Of a DNA stretch of 6,694 nucleotides, positions 1 through 6,534 are shown piece by piece. The stretch comes from an uncultured Anaerolineaceae bacterium (GTDB taxonomy: Bacteria > Chloroflexota > Anaerolineae > Promineifilales > Promineifilaceae), in the NCBI GenBank assembly GCA_937967805.1, contig CALBTC010000515.1, positions 1 through 6,694 of the forward strand, written 5' to 3'. Made by a program: the position numbers and the translations under genes. Below the pieces are notes generated by a model. The model did no database searches. It had not been told where the DNA came from and worked only from the letters and a program-made list of their open reading frames with translations. Positions within the stretch are counted from its first letter, which is position 1, and each line of letters starts with the position of its first letter.

Positions 1-835
1 GGGGCGGCTGGTATTCACGAATGAACCAGGGTTGAATCTCCGGCAATCTCTGGTTAAGCGCCGGACGGGCCGTAGAAACGGCCAAATTTACCTGTGACCA
101 CGCCTGGCCGCTGCGCTGGGTCACTTGGGCCAGGTAGTTGATTTCCAGTGCGTAACGGCCGTTTTCCGGCAAAAGGCGAATATCATACAGCGGCTGCCAG
201 CCGGCCTGGTTTACTACGTAGCTCACTTCGGGTTGGAAACGGCCGTCACTCACCACCTCCACCTCAATTTGGGCCTGGTACTGCTGTGGCGGTTTGGTCG
301 ATTGAATCTGCTTGAGTTCCGCCTGCAACTTTTGCAGGCGGCGCATGAGCGTTCTCTGTTCCTGGTCCAGTTGGCGCACGGCCGTGCGCATCGCTTCATC
401 CTGTTCCTGCAAAAAGGCAATCACCTGCTGCTGTTCGGCTACGGTTGTTTTACCCCGCGAGAGACCTTTGGCAAATTCGGCCGTGGCCTGGCGGATGCCG
501 TTTAAATAGGTTTCGTGTGCCTGCCAGCCCGTCTTTTGGTCTTCCAATACCCGGAGAGAATCCTTGACTTCTTCAATTTGCGCTTCCAGCTCACGCACTG
601 CTTCGGCCGGCGACGCCTCAAAAAATTGGCGCGTGACCTCCACGCCCAGCAGCCGAACGACGGCCGTCCCGCTGCCCCGCACCCGGATCGAATTGGTATC
701 CATCGTCAAGGGCAAGTCAGGCACAATCAGGCGATGGCGACCGGCCACAAGTTCGCAACTGCCCAGGCCAGACACACGCGCACGGTCCGGGTAAACGGTC
801 ACATCTTTAATTGCAATCTCAACAGAGACATCCAT
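1..835 (-). CDS. MuiA-family protein (DUF4140/DUF4139), N-terminal part, runs off the left edge
   Basis: The minus-strand reading frame opens at ATG 835-833 and stays open for 278 codons to the window edge, so the C-terminus is missing. The N-terminus (MDVSVEIAIKDVTVYPDRAR) fits the DUF4140 module, which typically begins with a V-x-VYPD-x-A motif. Residues about 77-178 are rich in E, Q, K and R and look like a coiled coil. From about residue 199 a DUF4139-like domain begins, with AGWQPLYDIRL (211-221), QVTQRSGQAW (237-246) and NLAVSTARP (250-258). This order is that of the 'mucoidy inhibitor A' family, whose members usually have around 500 residues or more; the biochemical function is unknown and the name comes from an effect on capsule mucoidy. 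The start is supported by AAGGAG five bases upstream. It lies 153 bp downstream of the histidine kinase, with a hairpin between them. Family assignment is confident; any role in polysaccharide control here is inference. Confidence 0.88.
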   Translation of the reverse strand, partial: MDVSVEIAIKDVTVYPDRARVSGLGSCELVAGRHRLIVPDLPLTMDTNSIRVRGSGTAVVRLLGVEVTRQFFEASPAEAVRELEAQIEEVKDSLRVLEDQKTGWQAHETYLNGIRQATAEFAKGLSRGKTTVAEQQQVIAFLQEQDEAMRTAVRQLDQEQRTLMRRLQKLQAELKQIQSTKPPQQYQAQIEVEVVSDGRFQPEVSYVVNQAGWQPLYDIRLLPENGRYALEINYLAQVTQRSGQAWSQVNLAVSTARPALNQRLPEIQPWFIREYQPP

Positions 836-840
836 GAAAT

Positions 841-846
841 CTCCTT
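841..846 (-). promoter_or_regulatory. Ribosome binding site of the MuiA-family gene
   Basis: On the minus strand AAGGAG lies five bases before the ATG at 835-833. It is a near-perfect Shine-Dalgarno sequence and fixes the start of a gene whose far end is outside the window. Confidence 0.8.
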
Positions 847-898
847 AGACAAAAAGTGCCTCGGGTCTCGTCCCCGACAAACATTCTCATTCTTTTGA

Positions 899-965
899 GG
901 AGCGGAGCATCCTCAGTTGCGGAGTGGGATTGCTCTAGCCGTTCGCATCTGAGGATGCTCACTCC
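899..965. repeat. Long imperfect inverted repeat (hairpin element) between the histidine kinase and MuiA-like genes
   Basis: A perfect 12-bp inverted repeat, GAGCATCCTCAG at 905-916 and CTGAGGATGCTC at 949-960, forms the core. After one mismatch the stem continues inward with 918-923 against 942-947, including one G-T pair. Outward, GGAG (899-902) pairs with CTCC (962-965) past a small bulge. The loop is about 18 nt (924-941). Read as a mobile unit, it has 17-18 bp terminal inverted repeats and a 67-bp total length, the size range of REP-like or very short MITE-like elements. Read as RNA, it would form a stable hairpin in a kinase-muiA transcript. No T-run follows it on either strand, so it is not a standard intrinsic terminator. 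Repetition elsewhere in the genome cannot be judged from this window. Confidence 0.75.
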
Positions 966-988
966 ACCACATTTGAGCAATATTAGCG

Positions 989-2188
989 TTAATACTTGGA
1001 CGGCAGTTCGGGCAAAGCCAGCCAGATAGGCATCTCAATATGAAATGTGCTGCCAGGACAGTTATCTTCATCAAAACCGGGGCTTTCTGCCCAGACGCGC
1101 CCACCATGCGCCTCGACGATCCCGCGGGCAATCGGTAATCCGAGCCCAGGACCACCACCTTTAAATTTTGTCTTGCTGGATGAATGCAGGCTGGCATCAG
1201 CAATGCTGCCAAATTTCTCGAAAATCGATTCCAGATTCTCAGCATCTATGCCAATACCTGTGTCCCTAACCTGGATATCAACAAATCCGGCCATATCCTC
1301 CGTCACTTCATCTTGCCGAACCAGGCTGCCAGAGACCACCACCTGCCCACCGTCTGGCGTGTACTTCAAACCGTTCATCAAAATTTTAGTGAGTGCTTTT
1401 TTCAGCTTTTCCGGATCGGCAAACGTATCGCTCTCAAACTCAAAAGGGATAATTTTCAAATCGACGCCTCGGCTGGCATAATAACGGTCAACGCTGTCGG
1501 CTACCAGCAAGACCGTCCGCTCCAGGCTGATTTCCTGATACTTTAGCTCTACCGTGCGTAAATCGAGCAAAGACACGTCCAGCATGTCGCCGATAATTTC
1601 GTGCATACGGCGAAAGCCATTGCCCAACCCTTCCAGGTAAATGTGCAGTTGGGGATCATTTTGGGTTTCAGCCCGTAAAATGTTGGTGTAACCTTCTAAG
1701 ATGGTCAGGGGTGTTTTTAGCTCATGGGCTGCCACCGCGATGAACTTGGATTTACTCTCCTTGAATTTCTCCTGCTGGGTACGCAGTTGTTCCATATGGG
1801 AAAGCAGTTCAGATCGCTGCATATCGGACGCCAGCTGCGTCGCTTCAATAATGGCGTAAGTCAACACATCATCGATCTGCCGCCAGGCGGTAAGGGCTTG
1901 TTCGGGTGTAAATTGCCCTTCTAATTTTTTGCCGATTTCCTCCTTCAGCACGCGCAGCAGCACCATCCAATCATACGCCGCCGGGGCATCGTGTCCAATC
2001 GCCGTGAGGGCCCATGATTGCACCTTGGCCAACTGCAATTCTCGTAACACGCCAACGCTGTCTACCAACACAGCAAGAAACTGTGGCACATCATCCTCAT
2101 CGGGCAGCATGTTAGGCACGCGGTACAGGGTTTCGGCGCAAAGTCTGGCAGATTGCTGCCGCAGCCACAGCTTTAGATTCTCGCTCAA
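989..2188 (-). CDS. Cytoplasmic sensor histidine kinase (HisKA + HATPase_c)
   Basis: This 399-residue protein is a sensor kinase that should autophosphorylate on a histidine and pass the phosphate to a response regulator not present here. The H-box AHELKTPL lies at 154-161 with the predicted phospho-acceptor His155. The ATP-binding domain has an N-box ([11 protein letters not shown], Asn272), a G1 box DTGIGI (309-314), an F-box IFEKFG (322-327) and a G2 box GGGPGLGL (344-351). All catalytic boxes are intact. There is no transmembrane segment or signal peptide, so it should be soluble. Residues 1-120 are mostly helical and form an unassigned input domain, joined to HisKA by a short charged helix (about 122-148). 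The start is TTG at 2188-2186, overlapping the trmFO stop (TTGA) and preceded by GGAG seven bases upstream. The stop is TAA at 991-989. It contains none of the ACGGCCGT sites frequent in neighbouring genes. The signal and partner are unknown. Confidence 0.93.
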
Positions 2189-3573
2189 TGGCTTTCTCCG
2201 GGCACAACAAGCATCTCTTCGGCAAAATTTGTCTCGGCTATGTCACGATCATAGGCGATATCGTTGTTGCGGGCAAAGCGGCGCATGGCGGTAAGCGCGC
2301 GTTCGCTGTACCAACGGTAGCGGTCTGCTTTTGACATTTGATGCTGCGGCTGAGGGAATAGGCCAAAGTTGGCCTTCATCGGCTGGAAATCTTTAATGCT
2401 GGCGTGGGTGACGTAGTGGCATAAAGCGCCCAGCATCGTGTTGGTGGGGAAGATGACAGGCAATTGCCCTTTGAGCAACCGGGCAGCGTTAAGCCCGGCG
2501 ACCAGGCCCGTTGCCGCATTACCCATGTATCCTTCCACGCCGGTAATTTGCCCGGCAAAAAAGAGATCGGTACGGCCGCGATATTGCAAGGTCGGTTGCA
2601 GCAGCCGGGGGGCATTGATGTAGGTGTTGCGGTGCATCATGCCGTAGCGTAAAAATTCAGCGTTTTCCAGGCCGGGGATAAGCCGCAGCACCCGCTTTTG
2701 CTCTCCCCACTTCAGGTTGGTCTGGAAGCCAACAATGTTGTAGAGGGAGCCAATAAGGTTGTCCTGGCGCAGTTGGACAACGGCGTACGGCCGTTTCCCG
2801 CTGCGTGAATCAATCAAACCAACCGGCCGCATCGGACCAAACGCCAGCGCCTTGCGCCCCCGCTGAGCCATCACCTCAATGGGCATACAGCCTTCAAAAA
2901 AGTTAGGGTCTTCCCGCTCGAACTGCTTCAAGGTAATCGTCTCGGCGGCCAACAGCGCGTCACAAAAGCGATCGTATTCCTCTTTGGTCATGGGGCAGTT
3001 GATGTAATCTCCCTCTTCCTGCCCTTCATCGTAGCGGGATTGGCGGAAAGCGATGTTGAAGTCGATTGTCTCATGATCCACAATGGGCGAGACAGCGTCA
3101 TAAAAGTAGAGGTATTCTTCGCCGGTCAGTTCGCTGATGCTGGCGGTGAGGGCCGCAGAGGTGAGTGGGCCGCTGGCAATAATTGTGGGCGTTTGGGGAA
3201 CGGCCGTCACTTCCTCGCGAATCAGTTCAATGTTGGGCTGGGCTTCAATTTTTTCGGTGACGAGTGCGGCAAATTTTTCACGATCCACAGCCAGAGAGGT
3301 ACCTGCGGGAACGGCCGTTTGTGCGGCGCAGTCTAAGATGAAAGACCCCAGGCCACGCAGCTCAGCTTTGAGCAGCCCAGGCGCCTTGTGCGGCAGCATG
3401 GAGCCCAAAGAGTTACTGCAAACAAGTTCGGCGAGCTGCTGGGTGACGTGAGCAGGCGTCTGCCGCTGGGGGCGCATCTCATACAATTTCACCTGTATGC
3501 CCTGCCTGGCCAGCTGCCATGCTGCTTCTGTTCCGGCTAATCCACCACCTATAATCACAAGAGGTTGGCTCAT
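2185..3573 (-). CDS. trmFO: TrmFO, folate/FAD-dependent tRNA (uracil-54-C5)-methyltransferase
   Basis: TrmFO makes ribothymidine at position 54 in the T-loop of tRNA, taking the carbon from 5,10-methylenetetrahydrofolate and electrons from FAD/NAD(P)H, unlike the SAM-dependent TrmA. The 462-residue product is slightly longer than the usual 435-450. It starts with the dinucleotide-binding motif [14 protein letters not shown] (6-19), as expected for a GidA-related flavoprotein. The conserved CSNSLGS (Cys52) and [12 protein letters not shown] (Cys229) match the two cysteines that are important in characterised TrmFO (about 53 and 226 in Bacillus subtilis). The C-terminal FAD-contacting motif [14 protein letters not shown] (338-351) is intact, as is the segment with [14 protein letters not shown] (375-388). 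The start ATG (3573-3571) gives the canonical N-terminus but has no good Shine-Dalgarno; an extended -10 lies only six bases upstream. The TGA stop overlaps the next gene's TTG start. GidA (MnmG) is excluded by the shorter length and the CSNSLGS signature. Confidence 0.97.
2196..2199 (-). promoter_or_regulatory. Ribosome binding site deciding the TTG start of the histidine kinase
   Basis: On the minus strand GGAG (in GGAGAAAGCCA) ends seven bases before the TTG codon at 2188-2186. It lies inside the last codons of trmFO. Its good spacing supports TTG as the true start over a later ATG (Met27), and fits translational coupling. Confidence 0.65.
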
Positions 3574-3579
3574 GCCTCA

Positions 3580-3588
3580 ATTGTATCA
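3580..3588 (-). promoter_or_regulatory. Candidate extended -10 promoter element for trmFO
   Basis: The minus strand reads TGATACAAT, an extended -10 (TGn plus TACAAT, five of six matches to TATAAT), ending six bases before the trmFO ATG. No good -35 is visible, which is tolerated with an extended -10. Initiation about seven bases downstream would give a leaderless or nearly leaderless mRNA, which fits the missing ribosome binding site. Two CAATTG palindromes (3578-3583 and 3593-3598) flank it. The rest of the 94-bp gap to the upstream gene shows no terminator, so read-through from that gene is also possible. Confidence 0.4.
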
Positions 3589-3667
3589 CAACCAATTGGA
3601 GAACACCGCGAAATTCTTGCAAAAACAGGAGGGTCTCAAGGTTCGCTTATGGTAAATAAGTTTGGGC

Positions 3668-5074
3668 TTAGGAATAGTGTAATTTTCCAGATAACACCGC
3701 ACCATCGGGAATGTGTATTTGATCTTCGGTTTCGTTGCGCAGCCACACCTCTCCCTGACAAACCACATCCTTGCCGAAGCAAAAATCGCCTTCCACAATG
3801 AGGCTTTTGTTTTGGACTAGCGACGGTGCGCCATGAGGGAATCGAGCTTCCAAATCTGAGACGTATTTGTAGAAACGGTCGTCTAGCTTAATGTTGAAAT
3901 GGCGCATTTGGCGCTGGGCGCTGGGCACAATGCGAAAATCCTCGGTAAGCGTGTACGCATCAGAACGAACAGCCAGCAAATCATCGCTGGTTTTTACCGG
4001 GGCGAAGCGGCTGCGCGGCACACGAATTGCCTCGGCCTCTTTAAAGACAGCAATCGCCGAACCCATCGCCGTTTCCAGTTGGTAAACTGGTATTGAATCT
4101 GGATCGCGCGGATCAACGGTTTTGCTGTTGCGAATCATAGGCAGCCCCAGACGATACTCGTGGGCTTGCATTTGCCGGTAGAGGGTGGGCAAATGGAACC
4201 ACAGGTTATTCGTATTGAAATATTGGTGGCGCTCGGTGTTTTGGAATACGGCCGTGTCCTCTGGGGGACATTGGGCAGATTCTCGCAGGATGAGGTGTCC
4301 ATCGCGGTGCTCGGCCAAATGACCACCTTTCTTATCCATCTCGGTTCGATCGGCCACTTCCATCATAAAAGGAATTTTGTTGTCCACGAAGTAACCCAAA
4401 ATGGATAAATTAGCCACGGCGCCCAAATTATCAGCATTGGAGACAAAGGCAAATTCATATCCTTTTTCCAGAAGATCGGGCAGCATTCCACTGGTAACAA
4501 GCGCGGTGTAAATATCACCATGCCCTGGCGGACACCATTCCAGCTCCGGGTTTTCCGGCCAATCCACCGGCTGCAAATTGTCTTGCCGAATCTTCGGCTC
4601 TTTGTGCTGCAAAAAGCTGTGAGGCAGGGCGTGGTTTAGGTCTGGATATTTTTCCAATAAAGCCAGGGAATCGGCTTCTGTGGAAAAGCTGTTCATGAGC
4701 AGCAGCGGCACATTGGCCAACTGCGCCTGTCGGGCAATGATGTCTAGAAAGGTAAGGCCATCCTTGACAGGCAGCAAAGATTTGGCGATTTCTAAGCCCA
4801 TGCTGGTGCCCAGACCGCCGTTTAGTTTGATAACGGCCGTTTGCGGCAAAGCATCTTTGCCAATTTCTTCTAACTTTTGCGAAAATTGTTCGGAATCCGG
4901 TAATTGTTGTACCGGGTTTATCTCATCTTCAGGGATGTAACCGGTTTGCCCGGTCAGCAGTTGTTCATAGTAGTAAGCAAATGTTTCAATAAAAAGTGAA
5001 GGCAAGCCTTCTGCCTTCATGCGGGTAAAAAACGGAGAAAAAGTGGAAGTTGTAACAGTCATAAAATTGTCCAT
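3668..5074 (-). CDS. UTP--glucose-1-phosphate uridylyltransferase, eukaryotic (UGP2) type
   Basis: The enzyme makes UDP-glucose and pyrophosphate from UTP and glucose-1-phosphate, feeding glycan, glycolipid or storage polymer synthesis in the cytoplasm. The 468-residue length fits the UDPGP family (about 470-510). The nucleotide-binding loop LNGGLGTSMG (84-93) is the UGP form; UDP-GlcNAc pyrophosphorylases usually carry L-x-GGQGTRLG. Further family motifs are CPPGHGDIY (181-189), VSNADNLGA (211-219), FNTNNLWFHL (286-295) and RFAPVKTSDDLL (356-367). The last ~45 residues have the alternating V/G pattern expected of the C-terminal left-handed beta-helix. Bacteria more often use GalU, which is a different family. 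Two starts are possible: ATG 5074-5072 or ATG 5062-5060 (Met5). Neither has a clear Shine-Dalgarno, and the first is overlapped by a TATAAT. It lies 30 bp after the TPR gene. Specificity for another hexose-1-phosphate cannot be excluded. Confidence 0.92.
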   Translation of the reverse strand: MDNFMTVTTSTFSPFFTRMKAEGLPSLFIETFAYYYEQLLTGQTGYIPEDEINPVQQLPDSEQFSQKLEEIGKDALPQTAVIKLNGGLGTSMGLEIAKSLLPVKDGLTFLDIIARQAQLANVPLLLMNSFSTEADSLALLEKYPDLNHALPHSFLQHKEPKIRQDNLQPVDWPENPELEWCPPGHGDIYTALVTSGMLPDLLEKGYEFAFVSNADNLGAVANLSILGYFVDNKIPFMMEVADRTEMDKKGGHLAEHRDGHLILRESAQCPPEDTAVFQNTERHQYFNTNNLWFHLPTLYRQMQAHEYRLGLPMIRNSKTVDPRDPDSIPVYQLETAMGSAIAVFKEAEAIRVPRSRFAPVKTSDDLLAVRSDAYTLTEDFRIVPSAQRQMRHFNIKLDDRFYKYVSDLEARFPHGAPSLVQNKSLIVEGDFCFGKDVVCQGEVWLRNETEDQIHIPDGAVLSGKLHYS

Positions 5075-5104
5075 TATAAGGAGCTAATAGAGCTCTGGTT
5101 TTGG

Positions 5105-5629
5105 TTATTGGGTACGGCCGTTTAATTGTTTTTGCAATTTGTCAATCAGGTTTTGGGCGTCTCGGTCATGTGGGTTTGCCTGCAATGCTCGCTGAAACCA
5201 GGCAATGGCCATCTCATACTCACGCCGGTCACGGTAAATGAGTCCAATGTTATAAGCTGCATTTGGGGCGGTCGGATCAATAGCCAATGCCTCTTCGAAA
5301 GCAGCAATTGCCCGGCGCTGATCTTCATCCCGAGCCAGTACGGGATTGCCCAGATAAGCCGCACCCAAATTGGTCCACACCATCACGTTGTCAGGTGCTT
5401 GCTCACGAAGCTTTTCCAGCAGCGCCACAGCCTGCCTAAACTTTTTTGTCAAAATGTATGCCCCACTCAAGTTTAAGGATGTATCGAAATGTTCTGGTTT
5501 TAAGGAATGGGCTTTTTGCAAGAGAGTAACAGCATCATTCACCTTGCCTCGATGCAAGAGCTCGCTCCCGCGCCGAAACAGAGACTCAAATTCCCGTTCG
5601 CCTGCCTGATCTTTAGAAACTTTCTTCAT
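5105..5629 (-). CDS. TPR-repeat protein (four tetratricopeptide repeats)
   Basis: This 174-residue protein consists almost wholly of tetratricopeptide repeats: about 14-47, 48-81, 82-121 and 122-155. Each shows the usual pattern of small and hydrophobic residues, with consensus-like ends such as LQKAHSLKPEH, FEEALAIDPTA and FQRALQANPHD. The third repeat carries an extra segment of about six residues (around GNPVLARDEDQR, 94-105) between its helices, so the superhelix may be kinked there. No signal peptide or membrane segment is seen, so it is probably a cytoplasmic scaffold or adaptor; the partner is unknown. The lysine-rich N-terminus and charged C-terminal helix (156-170) cap the fold. AGGAAGG ten bases upstream supports the ATG at 5629. 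It heads the minus-strand block and lies 30 bp before the pyrophosphorylase gene, suggesting co-transcription. The TPR assignment is firm; no specific function can be given. Confidence 0.88.
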   Translation of the reverse strand: MKKVSKDQAGEREFESLFRRGSELLHRGKVNDAVTLLQKAHSLKPEHFDTSLNLSGAYILTKKFRQAVALLEKLREQAPDNVMVWTNLGAAYLGNPVLARDEDQRRAIAAFEEALAIDPTAPNAAYNIGLIYRDRREYEMAIAWFQRALQANPHDRDAQNLIDKLQKQLNGRTQ

Positions 5630-5871: not shown

Positions 5872-6534
5872 ATGAACAAAAAAGCTGTACTACTCTGGAT
5901 AATCGCCTTCATTTTTTTAGTTGCCTGCGGCGGAGGAAGTGACCCGGAACCAGACGCCCCCGCTTCAGACAATGATACCAGCTCTTCCGTCATAACGGAA
6001 ACGGCCGAGACAACTGAGACAATGGAAGACGACAATGGCGCAGAGGATGCGGAAGAAATGGAAGAGGATCCCACTGAAGAAGGTGAGCCGGCAGAAGAGA
6101 CAGAGCCCATGGAGGAAGAGACTGAAGAAGATCCTGCCAGTGAGGAGCCTGCTGAAGAAACGGCCGAAGAATCAACCGCTTCTGACTCACCTTTCGGCGA
6201 TCGTCCCATGACCGGCACCGATCCTGAAACAGGTCTGCCCGTAAACCCGGAAACAGTTAGACCGGGTGACACATTTATTGTCCGTGGTGAAATAATTAGC
6301 ATGAACTTGACCCCGACCACATCACCAGAATTCTTAATTCAATCCCCGGATGGGCTTAAATTCCGCTTGCGCAGCCAGGACCTGGCCGATACATATTATG
6401 AGGATGGCGATCAGCTTCAGGCATTTCAATATCAGAATGGCCTTTTAGCCCAAGCTACAGCGACCCTGGCTGCGGATGCCAGCCCGTCTGATATTCCCAC
6501 AACGACAGATTTGGTGCTGGTTAAAGACGAATAA
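5872..6534 (+). CDS. Secreted lipoprotein with a highly acidic linker and a small beta-rich C-terminal domain; function unknown
   Basis: The 220-residue product begins with a classic lipoprotein signal: MNKK, a hydrophobic core (5-17) and the lipobox LVAC with Cys19 as the predicted lipidated residue. It should be cut by signal peptidase II and anchored on the outer face of the membrane. Residues 20-110 form a disordered linker with no Lys or Arg at all; within 43-100, 31 of 58 residues are Asp or Glu, and EPAEET occurs twice (72-77, 92-97). Residues about 128-200 contain alternating strands (TFIVRGEIISM, EFLIQSPDGLKFRLRSQ, DQLQAFQYQNGLLAQATATL) that could form a small OB-like barrel; this is a guess from pattern only. 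I recognise no named family. It has a strong ribosome binding site and its own terminator, so it is probably a single-gene unit diverging from the TPR-led block. It could be a ligand-binding or wall-spacing protein. Confidence 0.88.
   Translation: MNKKAVLLWIIAFIFLVACGGGSDPEPDAPASDNDTSSSVITETAETTETMEDDNGAEDAEEMEEDPTEEGEPAEETEPMEEETEEDPASEEPAEETAEESTASDSPFGDRPMTGTDPETGLPVNPETVRPGDTFIVRGEIISMNLTPTTSPEFLIQSPDGLKFRLRSQDLADTYYEDGDQLQAFQYQNGLLAQATATLAADASPSDIPTTTDLVLVKDE

What the first reader, a model, noticed from the sequence alone, without database searches (positions are those of the whole stretch)
155..5121. ACGGCCGT palindrome about 100-fold over-represented (HIP1-like)
The exact 8-bp palindrome ACGGCCGT occurs ten times, starting at 155, 239, 378, 660, 2787, 3200, 3311, 4248, 4833 and 5114. 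About 0.1 copies would be expected in 6.7 kb of evenly composed sequence. All copies are inside coding regions. They fall in all three frames: six encode Thr-Ala-Val, three Asn/Asp-Gly-Arg and one Arg-Pro, so a single protein motif does not explain them. Near copies add to this (TCGGCCGT at 477; ACGGCCGA at 6001 and 6160; ACGGCCGC at 2572). One copy extends to a 16-bp palindrome (374-389). The behaviour resembles the cyanobacterial HIP1 octamer GCGATCGC and could reflect DNA methylation, a repair or segregation signal, or mutational bias. The kinase gene (1.2 kb) has none, which is unusual in this context.
Basis: partly seen in the sequence, partly recalled or inferred. Interest (0 to 1): 0.7.

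Follow-up and report, generated by a model that had tools for sequence, protein, structure and literature searches.

The report
Genome-wide repeated palindrome in Chloroflexota
One bacterial family outside the cyanobacteria fills its genomes with thousands of copies of an exact 8-letter palindrome, almost always completed where a silent change can complete it, and some viral and plasmid-like sequences carry it too, the same odd behaviour as the unexplained HIP1 repeat of cyanobacteria.

Summary
The window is Chloroflexota (Anaerolineae) DNA. In the relative nearest in TrmFO, ACGGCCGT occurs 11,907 times in 8.1 Mb (reversed control 403); 27 of 52 genomes of that family carry at least 990/Mb. 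In samples of its class and phylum no genome outside the family reached 200/Mb. Some members carry GCGGCCGC, TCGGCCGA, CGGCCG or TGCCGGCA instead.

Where seven bases match and a synonymous choice could complete the eighth, it is completed in 97-99% of cases (about 40% expected). With one other base fixed wrong the preference nearly vanishes. All six substitution classes are affected (lambda 43-128), non-coding DNA too. Thr-Ala-Val is enriched 5-7-fold. This excludes codon usage and deamination and disfavours a mismatch-repair bias. Cyanobacterial HIP1 obeys the same rule; E. coli Chi does not. Some viral and plasmid-like contigs carry up to 3.7/kb.

No methyltransferase, Vsr or DndC family tested explains the carriers. 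The reader protein is unknown.

The parts
155..162 (.). ACGGCCGT copy 1 (Asn-Gly-Arg, DUF4140/DUF4139 gene)
   Evidence: intact in L001 and L002
239..246 (.). ACGGCCGT copy 2 (Asp-Gly-Arg)
   Evidence: intact in L001; in L002 the alignment has a gap at its last base
378..385 (.). ACGGCCGT copy 3 (Thr-Ala-Val), core of a 16-bp palindrome
   Evidence: intact in L001 and L002
374..389 (.). 16-bp perfect palindrome around copy 3
660..667 (.). ACGGCCGT copy 4 (Thr-Ala-Val)
   Evidence: not kept in L001 (2 mismatches) or L002 (4 mismatches)
2787..2794 (.). ACGGCCGT copy 5 (Arg-Pro, trmFO)
   Evidence: intact in L001, L002 and L013
3200..3207 (.). ACGGCCGT copy 6 (Thr-Ala-Val, trmFO)
   Evidence: intact in L001, L002 and L013
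3311..3318 (.). ACGGCCGT copy 7 (Thr-Ala-Val, trmFO)
   Evidence: intact in L001, L002 and L013
4248..4255 (.). ACGGCCGT copy 8 (Thr-Ala-Val, UTP--glucose-1-phosphate uridylyltransferase gene)
   Evidence: one mismatch in L001 and L002, three in L013
4833..4840 (.). ACGGCCGT copy 9 (Thr-Ala-Val, same gene)
   Evidence: intact in L001, L002 and L013
5114..5121 (.). ACGGCCGT copy 10 (Asn-Gly-Arg, TPR gene)
   Evidence: intact in L001 and L002
477..484 (.). near copy TCGGCCGT
2572..2579 (.). near copy ACGGCCGC
6001..6008 (.). near copy ACGGCCGA
6160..6167 (.). near copy ACGGCCGA

Best explanation
ACGGCCGT is the highly iterated palindrome (HIP) of a Chloroflexota family, the counterpart there of cyanobacterial HIP1. 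SHOWN: the exact palindrome, and only it, is favoured over one-letter variants, by odds of 41-136 in the large chromosomal samples and 13-111 on the six viral or plasmid-like samples tested. The bias acts in coding and non-coding DNA and on transversions as well as transitions. In the octamer sets it is about threefold weaker when another copy lies within 60 bp. The preferred palindrome differs between member lineages. INFERRED: such a pattern points to a bias in fixation rather than in mutation. Most likely a dimeric, sequence-specific DNA-binding or DNA-modifying protein reads the exact palindrome, and DNA living in this cell gains by carrying it, whether chromosome, phage or plasmid. That gain could be better maintenance, protection or repair, or preferential copying by recombination. 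Lineages switch palindrome when that protein's specificity changes. The protein, its chemistry (methylation is the leading candidate) and the benefit are not identified.
For: Genome-wide counts and family restriction. Codon-controlled completion: 1027 of 1059 (G001), 1955 of 1976 (G206), 392 of 401 (nine other high sequences, window included), 1117 of 1131 (G186, GCGGCCGC) and 2102 of 2188 (G156, CGGCCG), against 416, 826, 160, 408 and 808 expected; 204 of 207 (G222, TCGGCCGA), 115 of 119 (G228, TGCCGGCA) and 184 of 203 (G243, CGGCCG), against 72, 51 and 63. All-or-none: lambda 41-136 falls to 0.76-1.75 with one fixed mismatch elsewhere; the low genomes give 1.09-1.45 there. Six substitution classes, lambda 43-128. 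Non-coding copies 20-149 times the neutral expectation while near-misses stay at 0.57-1.71. Thr-Ala-Val 4.9-7.4-fold in ACGGCCGT genomes against 0.84 (G186), 2.1 (G156) and 1.3 (low); Ala-Ala-Ala 3.9-fold in G186 against 1.2-1.8. Distance effect: lambda 39 at 9-60 bp, 133-144 at 120-600 bp. Conservation: 8 of 10 intact at about 82% nucleotide identity, 7 of 10 at about 76%. Viral and plasmid-like sequences. HIP1 yardstick.
Against: No protein that reads the palindrome was found. Lambda is of similar order in chromosomes of different lineages, in some viral contigs and in cyanobacterial plasmids. Selection alone need not give that, because effective population sizes must differ; it may hint at a common molecular bias instead. 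The distance effect is modest, its bootstrap ranges barely separate (24-85 against 87-247), and in the CGGCCG genome (G156) lambda falls again at 300-600 bp. The Arg-Pro frame shows no peptide enrichment (0.98-1.09; a loose test). Copies are rarer in non-coding than in coding DNA. The dense viral contigs may be long-resident prophages or plasmids, so selection on free phages is not shown; 24 of 28 viral contigs with related terminases have no copy.
Confidence: 0.5

Rival explanations
1. Biased repair ratchet (Elhai's model): a methyltransferase marks the palindrome and mismatch repair then keeps mutations that create it and reverts those that destroy it. The palindrome is a by-product without function.
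For: The frequency is near the one site per 1000 nt that the model predicts (PMC4390886). Lambda of similar order across lineages, contigs and cyanobacteria suggests a molecular constant. Cytosine-5 methyltransferase genes were found in 10 of 14 HIP genomes against 5 of 20 others.
Against: Mismatch repair acts very unequally on mismatch types (my knowledge), but lambda for C-G transversions (87) lies between those of the two transition classes (46 and 123), and the ranges overlap. No PF00145 gene was found in G004, G172, G199 or G206, the last with 15,176 copies (drafts, so gaps are possible), and those found fall into several groups without one shared close relative. Vsr is in 4 of 14. The distance effect is not expected.
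Confidence: 0.2
2. Recombination-coupled molecular drive: DNA carrying the palindrome is taken up, cut or copied preferentially and converts near-miss alleles in transformation or between chromosome copies, as proposed for DNA uptake sequences.
For: Conversion by recombination ignores mismatch type, which fits, and would act on mobile DNA too. Uptake sequences also reach about one per kb (my knowledge).
Against: Uptake sequences are not palindromes (passage of PMC1939737). Drive should fade when copies are as dense as 2/kb, yet lambda is still 39 within 60 bp. No uptake or competence genes were tested.
Confidence: 0.2
3. Cytosine deamination, CpG decay or Vsr repair: only C-T changes are involved.
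For: CGGCCG holds CpG; Vsr genes occur in 4 of 14 HIP genomes and 3 of 18 others.
Against: All six substitution classes are affected; Vsr was not found in 10 of 14.
Confidence: 0.02
4. Codon usage, amino-acid composition or chance.
For: Six of ten copies share one frame.
Against: The codon-controlled test, non-coding copies, reversed control 403 against 11,907, and almost no effect when another base is fixed wrong.
Confidence: 0.01
5. Restriction pressure against near-misses: the cell cuts sequences one letter off and protects the exact palindrome.
For: Near-misses that a synonymous change could complete are almost absent. G204 and G207 hold a methyltransferase beside a possible nuclease gene. 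With one fixed mismatch the CGGCCG genome G156 gives lambda 0.76, a slight avoidance.
Against: Near-misses that cannot be completed are not strongly avoided: lambda 0.76-1.75 with one fixed mismatch, and non-coding near-misses are at 0.57-1.71 of neutral.
Confidence: 0.03

Closest known systems
HIP1 (GCGATCGC) of cyanobacteria
   Same: Exact GC-rich octamer palindrome with the same behaviour under the same kind of script: lambda 47 and 22 in two cyanobacterial plasmids, nearly all-or-none (1.4 and 2.3 with a fixed mismatch), pooled substitution classes 25-51. Dense on some viral contigs (33 of 120 loci at 1/kb or more, all chosen for holding a close pair).
   Different: Another phylum, another core (CGGCCG, no GATC). 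PF02086 genes are in 13 of 14 carriers, and the two tested are Dam-type, but the palindrome holds no GATC.
Alternate HIPs of cyanobacteria (GGGATCCC, TCGATCGA, GGCGCC and others; Elhai 2015, PMC4390886)
   Same: One palindrome replaces another in single lineages, at similar density.
   Different: Here a series with one core and changing outer pair (ACGGCCGT, GCGGCCGC, TCGGCCGA, bare CGGCCG), plus TGCCGGCA. In the cyanobacteria each has a predicted matching methyltransferase; here none was pinned down.
Chi of E. coli (GCTGGTGG)
   Same: Over-represented 8-mer that acts in DNA processing (my knowledge).
   Different: Not a palindrome; lambda 1.5 in 200 kb of K-12 by the same kind of test (84 of 160).
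DNA uptake sequences of Neisseria and Haemophilus
   Same: About one per kb, spread by drive or selection (my knowledge).
   Different: Not palindromes (passage of PMC1939737); not tested here with the same code.

Membership tests
HIP class (Elhai 2015) | GC-rich palindrome of 5-8 bases | tested here: met
   ACGGCCGT, GCGGCCGC, TCGGCCGA, CGGCCG, TGCCGGCA
HIP class (Elhai 2015) | About 500-2500 copies per million bases | tested here: met
   991-2102/Mb in 27 of 52 family genomes; GCGGCCGC 1505/Mb in G186 (my division); CGGCCG in G156 exceeds the range (1105 in 209 kb)
HIP class (Elhai 2015) | By far the most over-represented word | tested here: met
   Top octamer by order-2 O/E, among words with at least 40 counts on both strands together, in samples of G001 (33), G186 (35), G206 (47) and G156 (15); top palindrome by z in G222 (O/E 53) and G228 (23)
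HIP class (Elhai 2015) | Alternate HIPs occur where the usual one is rare | tested here: met
   G186 has 83 ACGGCCGT and 12,040 GCGGCCGC; G222 198 ACGGCCGT; G228 14 ACGGCCGT and 3665 TGCCGGCA
HIP class (Elhai 2015) | A methyltransferase that can act on the palindrome is present | tested here: inconclusive
   PF00145 in 10 of 14; A1 family in 6 of 14; PF01555 in 31 of 32 genomes, carriers or not; specificities unknown; drafts of untold completeness
HIP class (Elhai 2015) | One-letter deviations most common at the first and last base | tested here: inconclusive
   Raw counts: so in G001, G206 and the other high set, not in G186 or in G156. After codon control every position shows a strong bias (odds ratios about 20-460, few misses)
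HIP1 proper | Sequence GCGATCGC | tested here: not met
   It is not among the top words listed for these genomes
Vsr-driven enrichment | Vsr endonuclease present | tested here: not met
   4 of 14 HIP genomes
Vsr-driven enrichment | Only T:G (C to T) changes affected | tested here: not met
   All six classes affected
Dnd phosphorothioate sites (GGCC core recalled, Streptomyces) | dndC gene present | tested here: not met
   Over cut-off in 2 of 16 HIP genomes (G002, G204); a 93-residue partial match below cut-off in G199
Chi-type recombination hotspot | Recognition by RecBCD or AddAB | not tested
   No call on these genes; Chi itself lacks the lambda signature
DNA uptake sequence | Preferential uptake in transformation | not testable with these tools
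   -

The most novel reading that the evidence does not exclude
HIPs are a general, convergent bacterial system rather than a cyanobacterial oddity. An all-or-none recognition of one exact palindrome acts as a credential on all DNA that lives in the cell, so that chromosome, phages and plasmids are all pulled to carry it. It obeys one rule in at least two phyla (a bias of roughly 15-135-fold, blind to the kind of substitution), weakens within about 100 bp of another copy where that was measured, and is strong enough to rewrite tripeptides across the proteome. The reader protein changes specificity between close lineages.
Probability: 0.3. Interest if true: 0.92.

Novelty: new variant of a known kind. 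Interest (0 to 1): 0.78.

Why it matters
HIP1 was described in 1995 (reference seen) and its role was still called a mystery in 2015; one obstacle is that it was studied in one phylum. A second phylum with many genomes, a replacement series of palindromes and HIP-bearing viral contigs makes comparative tests possible: which gene changes when the palindrome changes. The codon-controlled test gives one number, lambda, that can be compared between organisms. Here it already speaks against codon usage, deamination and simple mismatch-repair explanations, and it sets HIPs apart from Chi. Practically, the density of the palindrome could help to assign metagenomic phages and plasmids to hosts.

Tried and rejected
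A1 is full length in 6 of 14 HIP genomes and 0 of 18 others, but was not found in 8 HIP genomes, so it is a lead only. Vsr and dndC were rejected. Simple near-miss toxicity was rejected. The low genomes are not a clean 'no HIP' class for CGGCCG, because several show a weak bias (lambda 1.5-5.7). The TrmFO tree has a poor backbone, so gains and losses of HIPs could not be ordered. The named relatives that I used are metagenome drafts, so a missing gene may be a gap. Positions printed for the second sequence of reversed alignments are not true locus coordinates and are not used. Literature: in the listings of nine searches (long ones cut) of one open-access library I saw no report of HIPs in Chloroflexota; I opened four papers, and most subscription papers are not held. 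Xu, Lawrence and Durand 2018 (recalled: HIP1 conserved by selection) is not held; Delaye and Moya 2011 was seen only as a reference and is not held. Seen of PMC4390886: abstract and outline, sections 2.3, 2.5.3 and 2.6, discussion parts 1-2 of 3, and passages; passages only of PMC1939737, PMC5317091 and PMC6560206; other papers as search listings.


Full report
WHAT IS THERE. ACGGCCGT occurs ten times in the window at the stated places. Shuffles give a mean of 0.09 and a maximum of 3. The frames are as described and the kinase gene has none, but neither has the matching stretch of the relative L001. At 1.5/kb a 1.2-kb gene without a copy is ordinary.

WHERE IT COMES FROM. The TrmFO protein (window 2185-3573) matches Anaerolineae and other Chloroflexota drafts: 93% in L001, 88% in L002, 67-79% in L003-L018. 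The window's own genome is not held, so relatives stand in for it.

IT IS GENOME-WIDE. Counts of ACGGCCGT with the reversed word as control: G001 11,907 in 8.1 Mb (403); G002 12,866 in 7.7 Mb (64); G003 6147; G004 6919; G005 9707; G204 8075; G205 6466; G138 6514; G206 15,176 in 7.5 Mb (183); G207 8313. In 52 genomes of G001's family the densities fall into groups: 27 at 991-2102/Mb, 3 at 421-514/Mb, 22 below 200/Mb. In 199 genomes of the class only G001, G138, G172 and G199 exceed 1000/Mb and G156 has 421/Mb; all five are also in the family list. In 251 genomes of the phylum only G001 exceeds 200/Mb. The class and phylum sets are samples.

A SERIES OF PALINDROMES. G186 has 83 ACGGCCGT but 12,040 GCGGCCGC (control 2). 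G222 has TCGGCCGA, 94 in 85 kb, O/E 53. G228 has TGCCGGCA, 43 in 45 kb and 3665 genome-wide (control column). G156 has the hexamer CGGCCG, 1105 in 209 kb, and G243 has 92 in 32 kb. Other members show a weak CGGCCG bias.

ALL-OR-NONE RECOGNITION. I took every coding place where all letters but one match and the last letter is a synonymous third position, and compared the choice with that genome's own codon usage for the same amino acid, first two bases and next base. The palindrome was completed in 1027 of 1059 (G001), 1955 of 1976 (G206), 392 of 401 (nine other high sequences, window included), 1117 of 1131 (G186) and 2102 of 2188 (G156) cases. The expected numbers are 416, 826, 160, 408 and 808. 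Ten low loci gave 35 of 61 (21 expected). G222 gave 204 of 207, G228 115 of 119 and G243 184 of 203. Four other words tested in G001 and G206 showed no such bias except a small excess for one in G001 (12 of 26 against 7.4). The odds ratio, lambda, is 41-136 for the first five sets and falls to 1.75, 1.35, 1.62, 0.97 and 0.76 when one other base is fixed wrong; in the low set that figure is 1.09-1.45. Partial matches are hardly sought or avoided.

NOT A MUTATION SPECTRUM. Pooled over six sets, lambda is 128 (A-C), 123 (A-G), 43 (A-T), 58 (C-A), 87 (C-G) and 46 (C-T): a threefold spread, with no split between transitions and transversions. Deamination or Vsr would touch C-T only. Mismatch repair favours some mismatches strongly (my knowledge). 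In non-coding DNA copies are 73, 149, 54, 44, 20 and 73 times the composition expectation, while near-misses stay at 0.57-1.71; G156 and G186 lie clearly below their coding lambda there, and copies per kb are fewer in non-coding than in coding DNA.

PROTEINS ARE CHANGED TOO. Thr-Ala-Val is 4.9-, 7.3- and 7.4-fold over independent expectation in the ACGGCCGT sets, 0.84 in G186, 2.1 in G156 and 1.3 in the low set. Tyr/His/Asn/Asp-Gly-Arg is 2.8-3.5-fold against 0.9-1.0 in G186 and the low set (1.8 in G156). Ala-Ala-Ala is 3.9-fold in G186 against 1.2-1.8 elsewhere. The Arg-Pro frame shows no enrichment (0.98-1.09; a loose test).

CONSERVATION AND SPACING. Of the window's ten copies 8 are intact in L001 (about 82% nucleotide identity) and 7 in L002 (about 76%); 16 of 20 L001 copies in aligned stretches are intact in L002, and 16 of 22 the other way. 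Independent bases would give about 20% and 11% (my arithmetic). Lambda is 39 for places 9-60 bp from another copy, 85 at 60-120, 133-144 at 120-600 and 131 at 600-1200, and falls to 15 beyond 1200 bp, perhaps recently acquired DNA (five octamer sets). In G156 the trend is less regular.

VIRAL AND PLASMID-LIKE DNA. A terminase-bearing stretch of G002 (L238) has 18 copies in 7.6 kb and completes 45 of 45 possible sites. A viral contig with an 86% identical terminase (L317; portal and terminase by PHROGs) has 60 in 21 kb and completes 110 of 122, lambda 13. Of 148 viral loci then held (28 terminase relatives, 120 pair hits; some share a contig, and short pair hits are biased to high density) 33 have at least 1/kb, up to 3.7/kb; five further samples gave lambda 20-111. 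L362 looks plasmid-like (ParA, FtsK). Against this, a phage-like 4.4-kb contig of G172 has none, and 24 of the 28 viral contigs with related terminases have none; their hosts are unknown. Residence as prophage is possible.

YARDSTICKS. The same kind of script on cyanobacterial plasmids gives HIP1 lambda 47 (265 of 282) and 22 (88 of 99), 1.4 and 2.3 with a fixed mismatch, and 25-51 for the pooled substitution classes. E. coli Chi gives 1.5 (84 of 160). So this is HIP1-like in the strict sense, and Chi is not.

WHAT READS IT. Unknown. Cytosine-5 methyltransferases (PF00145) were found in 10 of 14 HIP genomes and 5 of 20 others, not in G004, G172, G199 and G206, and they fall into several groups. 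PF02086 genes over 190 bits are in 13 of 14 HIP and 4 of 18 other genomes (two tested are Dam-type), but the palindrome has no GATC. A beta-class methyltransferase family (A1) is full length in 6 of 14 and 0 of 18; in G204 and G207 it sits beside a possible nuclease gene, of which the G207 copy has a weak AHJR-like match. Vsr 4 of 14 and 3 of 18, dndC 2 of 16. Elhai's model of GmeC-directed mismatch repair remains possible but does not predict a bias blind to the kind of substitution.

VERDICT. A real, strong HIP system, shared by about half of one family and replaced by sister palindromes in some others, outside the cyanobacteria and with the same quantitative rule as HIP1.

Noticed in passing
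G034 (L601, 15 kb): CGCCGGCG occurs 20 times in 15 kb (1.75 expected by composition), 57 of 65 completable sites completed against 31.8 expected; G034, G067 and G095 each have about 4200 copies genome-wide (control column). Possibly another HIP elsewhere in the class.
   Followed up: partly
L236:3249-4991, L237:3014-4759: Beta-class methyltransferase (family A1) beside a 241-242-aa ORF; the L236 copy has a weak AHJR-like nuclease match (Pfam E 0.015, below cut-off): a possible restriction-modification pair in two HIP genomes.
   Followed up: partly
L221-L230 (PF02086 loci): PF02086 adenine methyltransferase genes over 190 bits in 13 of 14 HIP genomes (two tested are Dam-type), recalling the GATC enzymes of HIP1 cyanobacteria, although this palindrome has no GATC.
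   Followed up: no
L536, L468, L552 and other viral loci: Viral contigs very rich in cyanobacterial HIP1 (up to 4/kb; 33 of 120 loci, all chosen for a close pair, at 1/kb or more), so HIP1 also sits on mobile DNA.
   Followed up: no
L233 (G172:C117): Phage-like contig in a HIP genome with no copy in 4.4 kb: a recent arrival or a binning error.
   Followed up: no
L317:6693-7943 and L238:3280-4404: A methyltransferase gene in a HIP-rich viral contig (phrog_67) and a methyltransferase-like gene in the related phage-like stretch of G002 (PF01555 hit); a possible way to find the palindrome's modifier.
   Followed up: no
L242:3528-4295: Small methyltransferase-like ORF with a TSPPY motif (typical of N4-cytosine enzymes, recalled) in G206, in which no PF00145 gene was found.
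   Followed up: no
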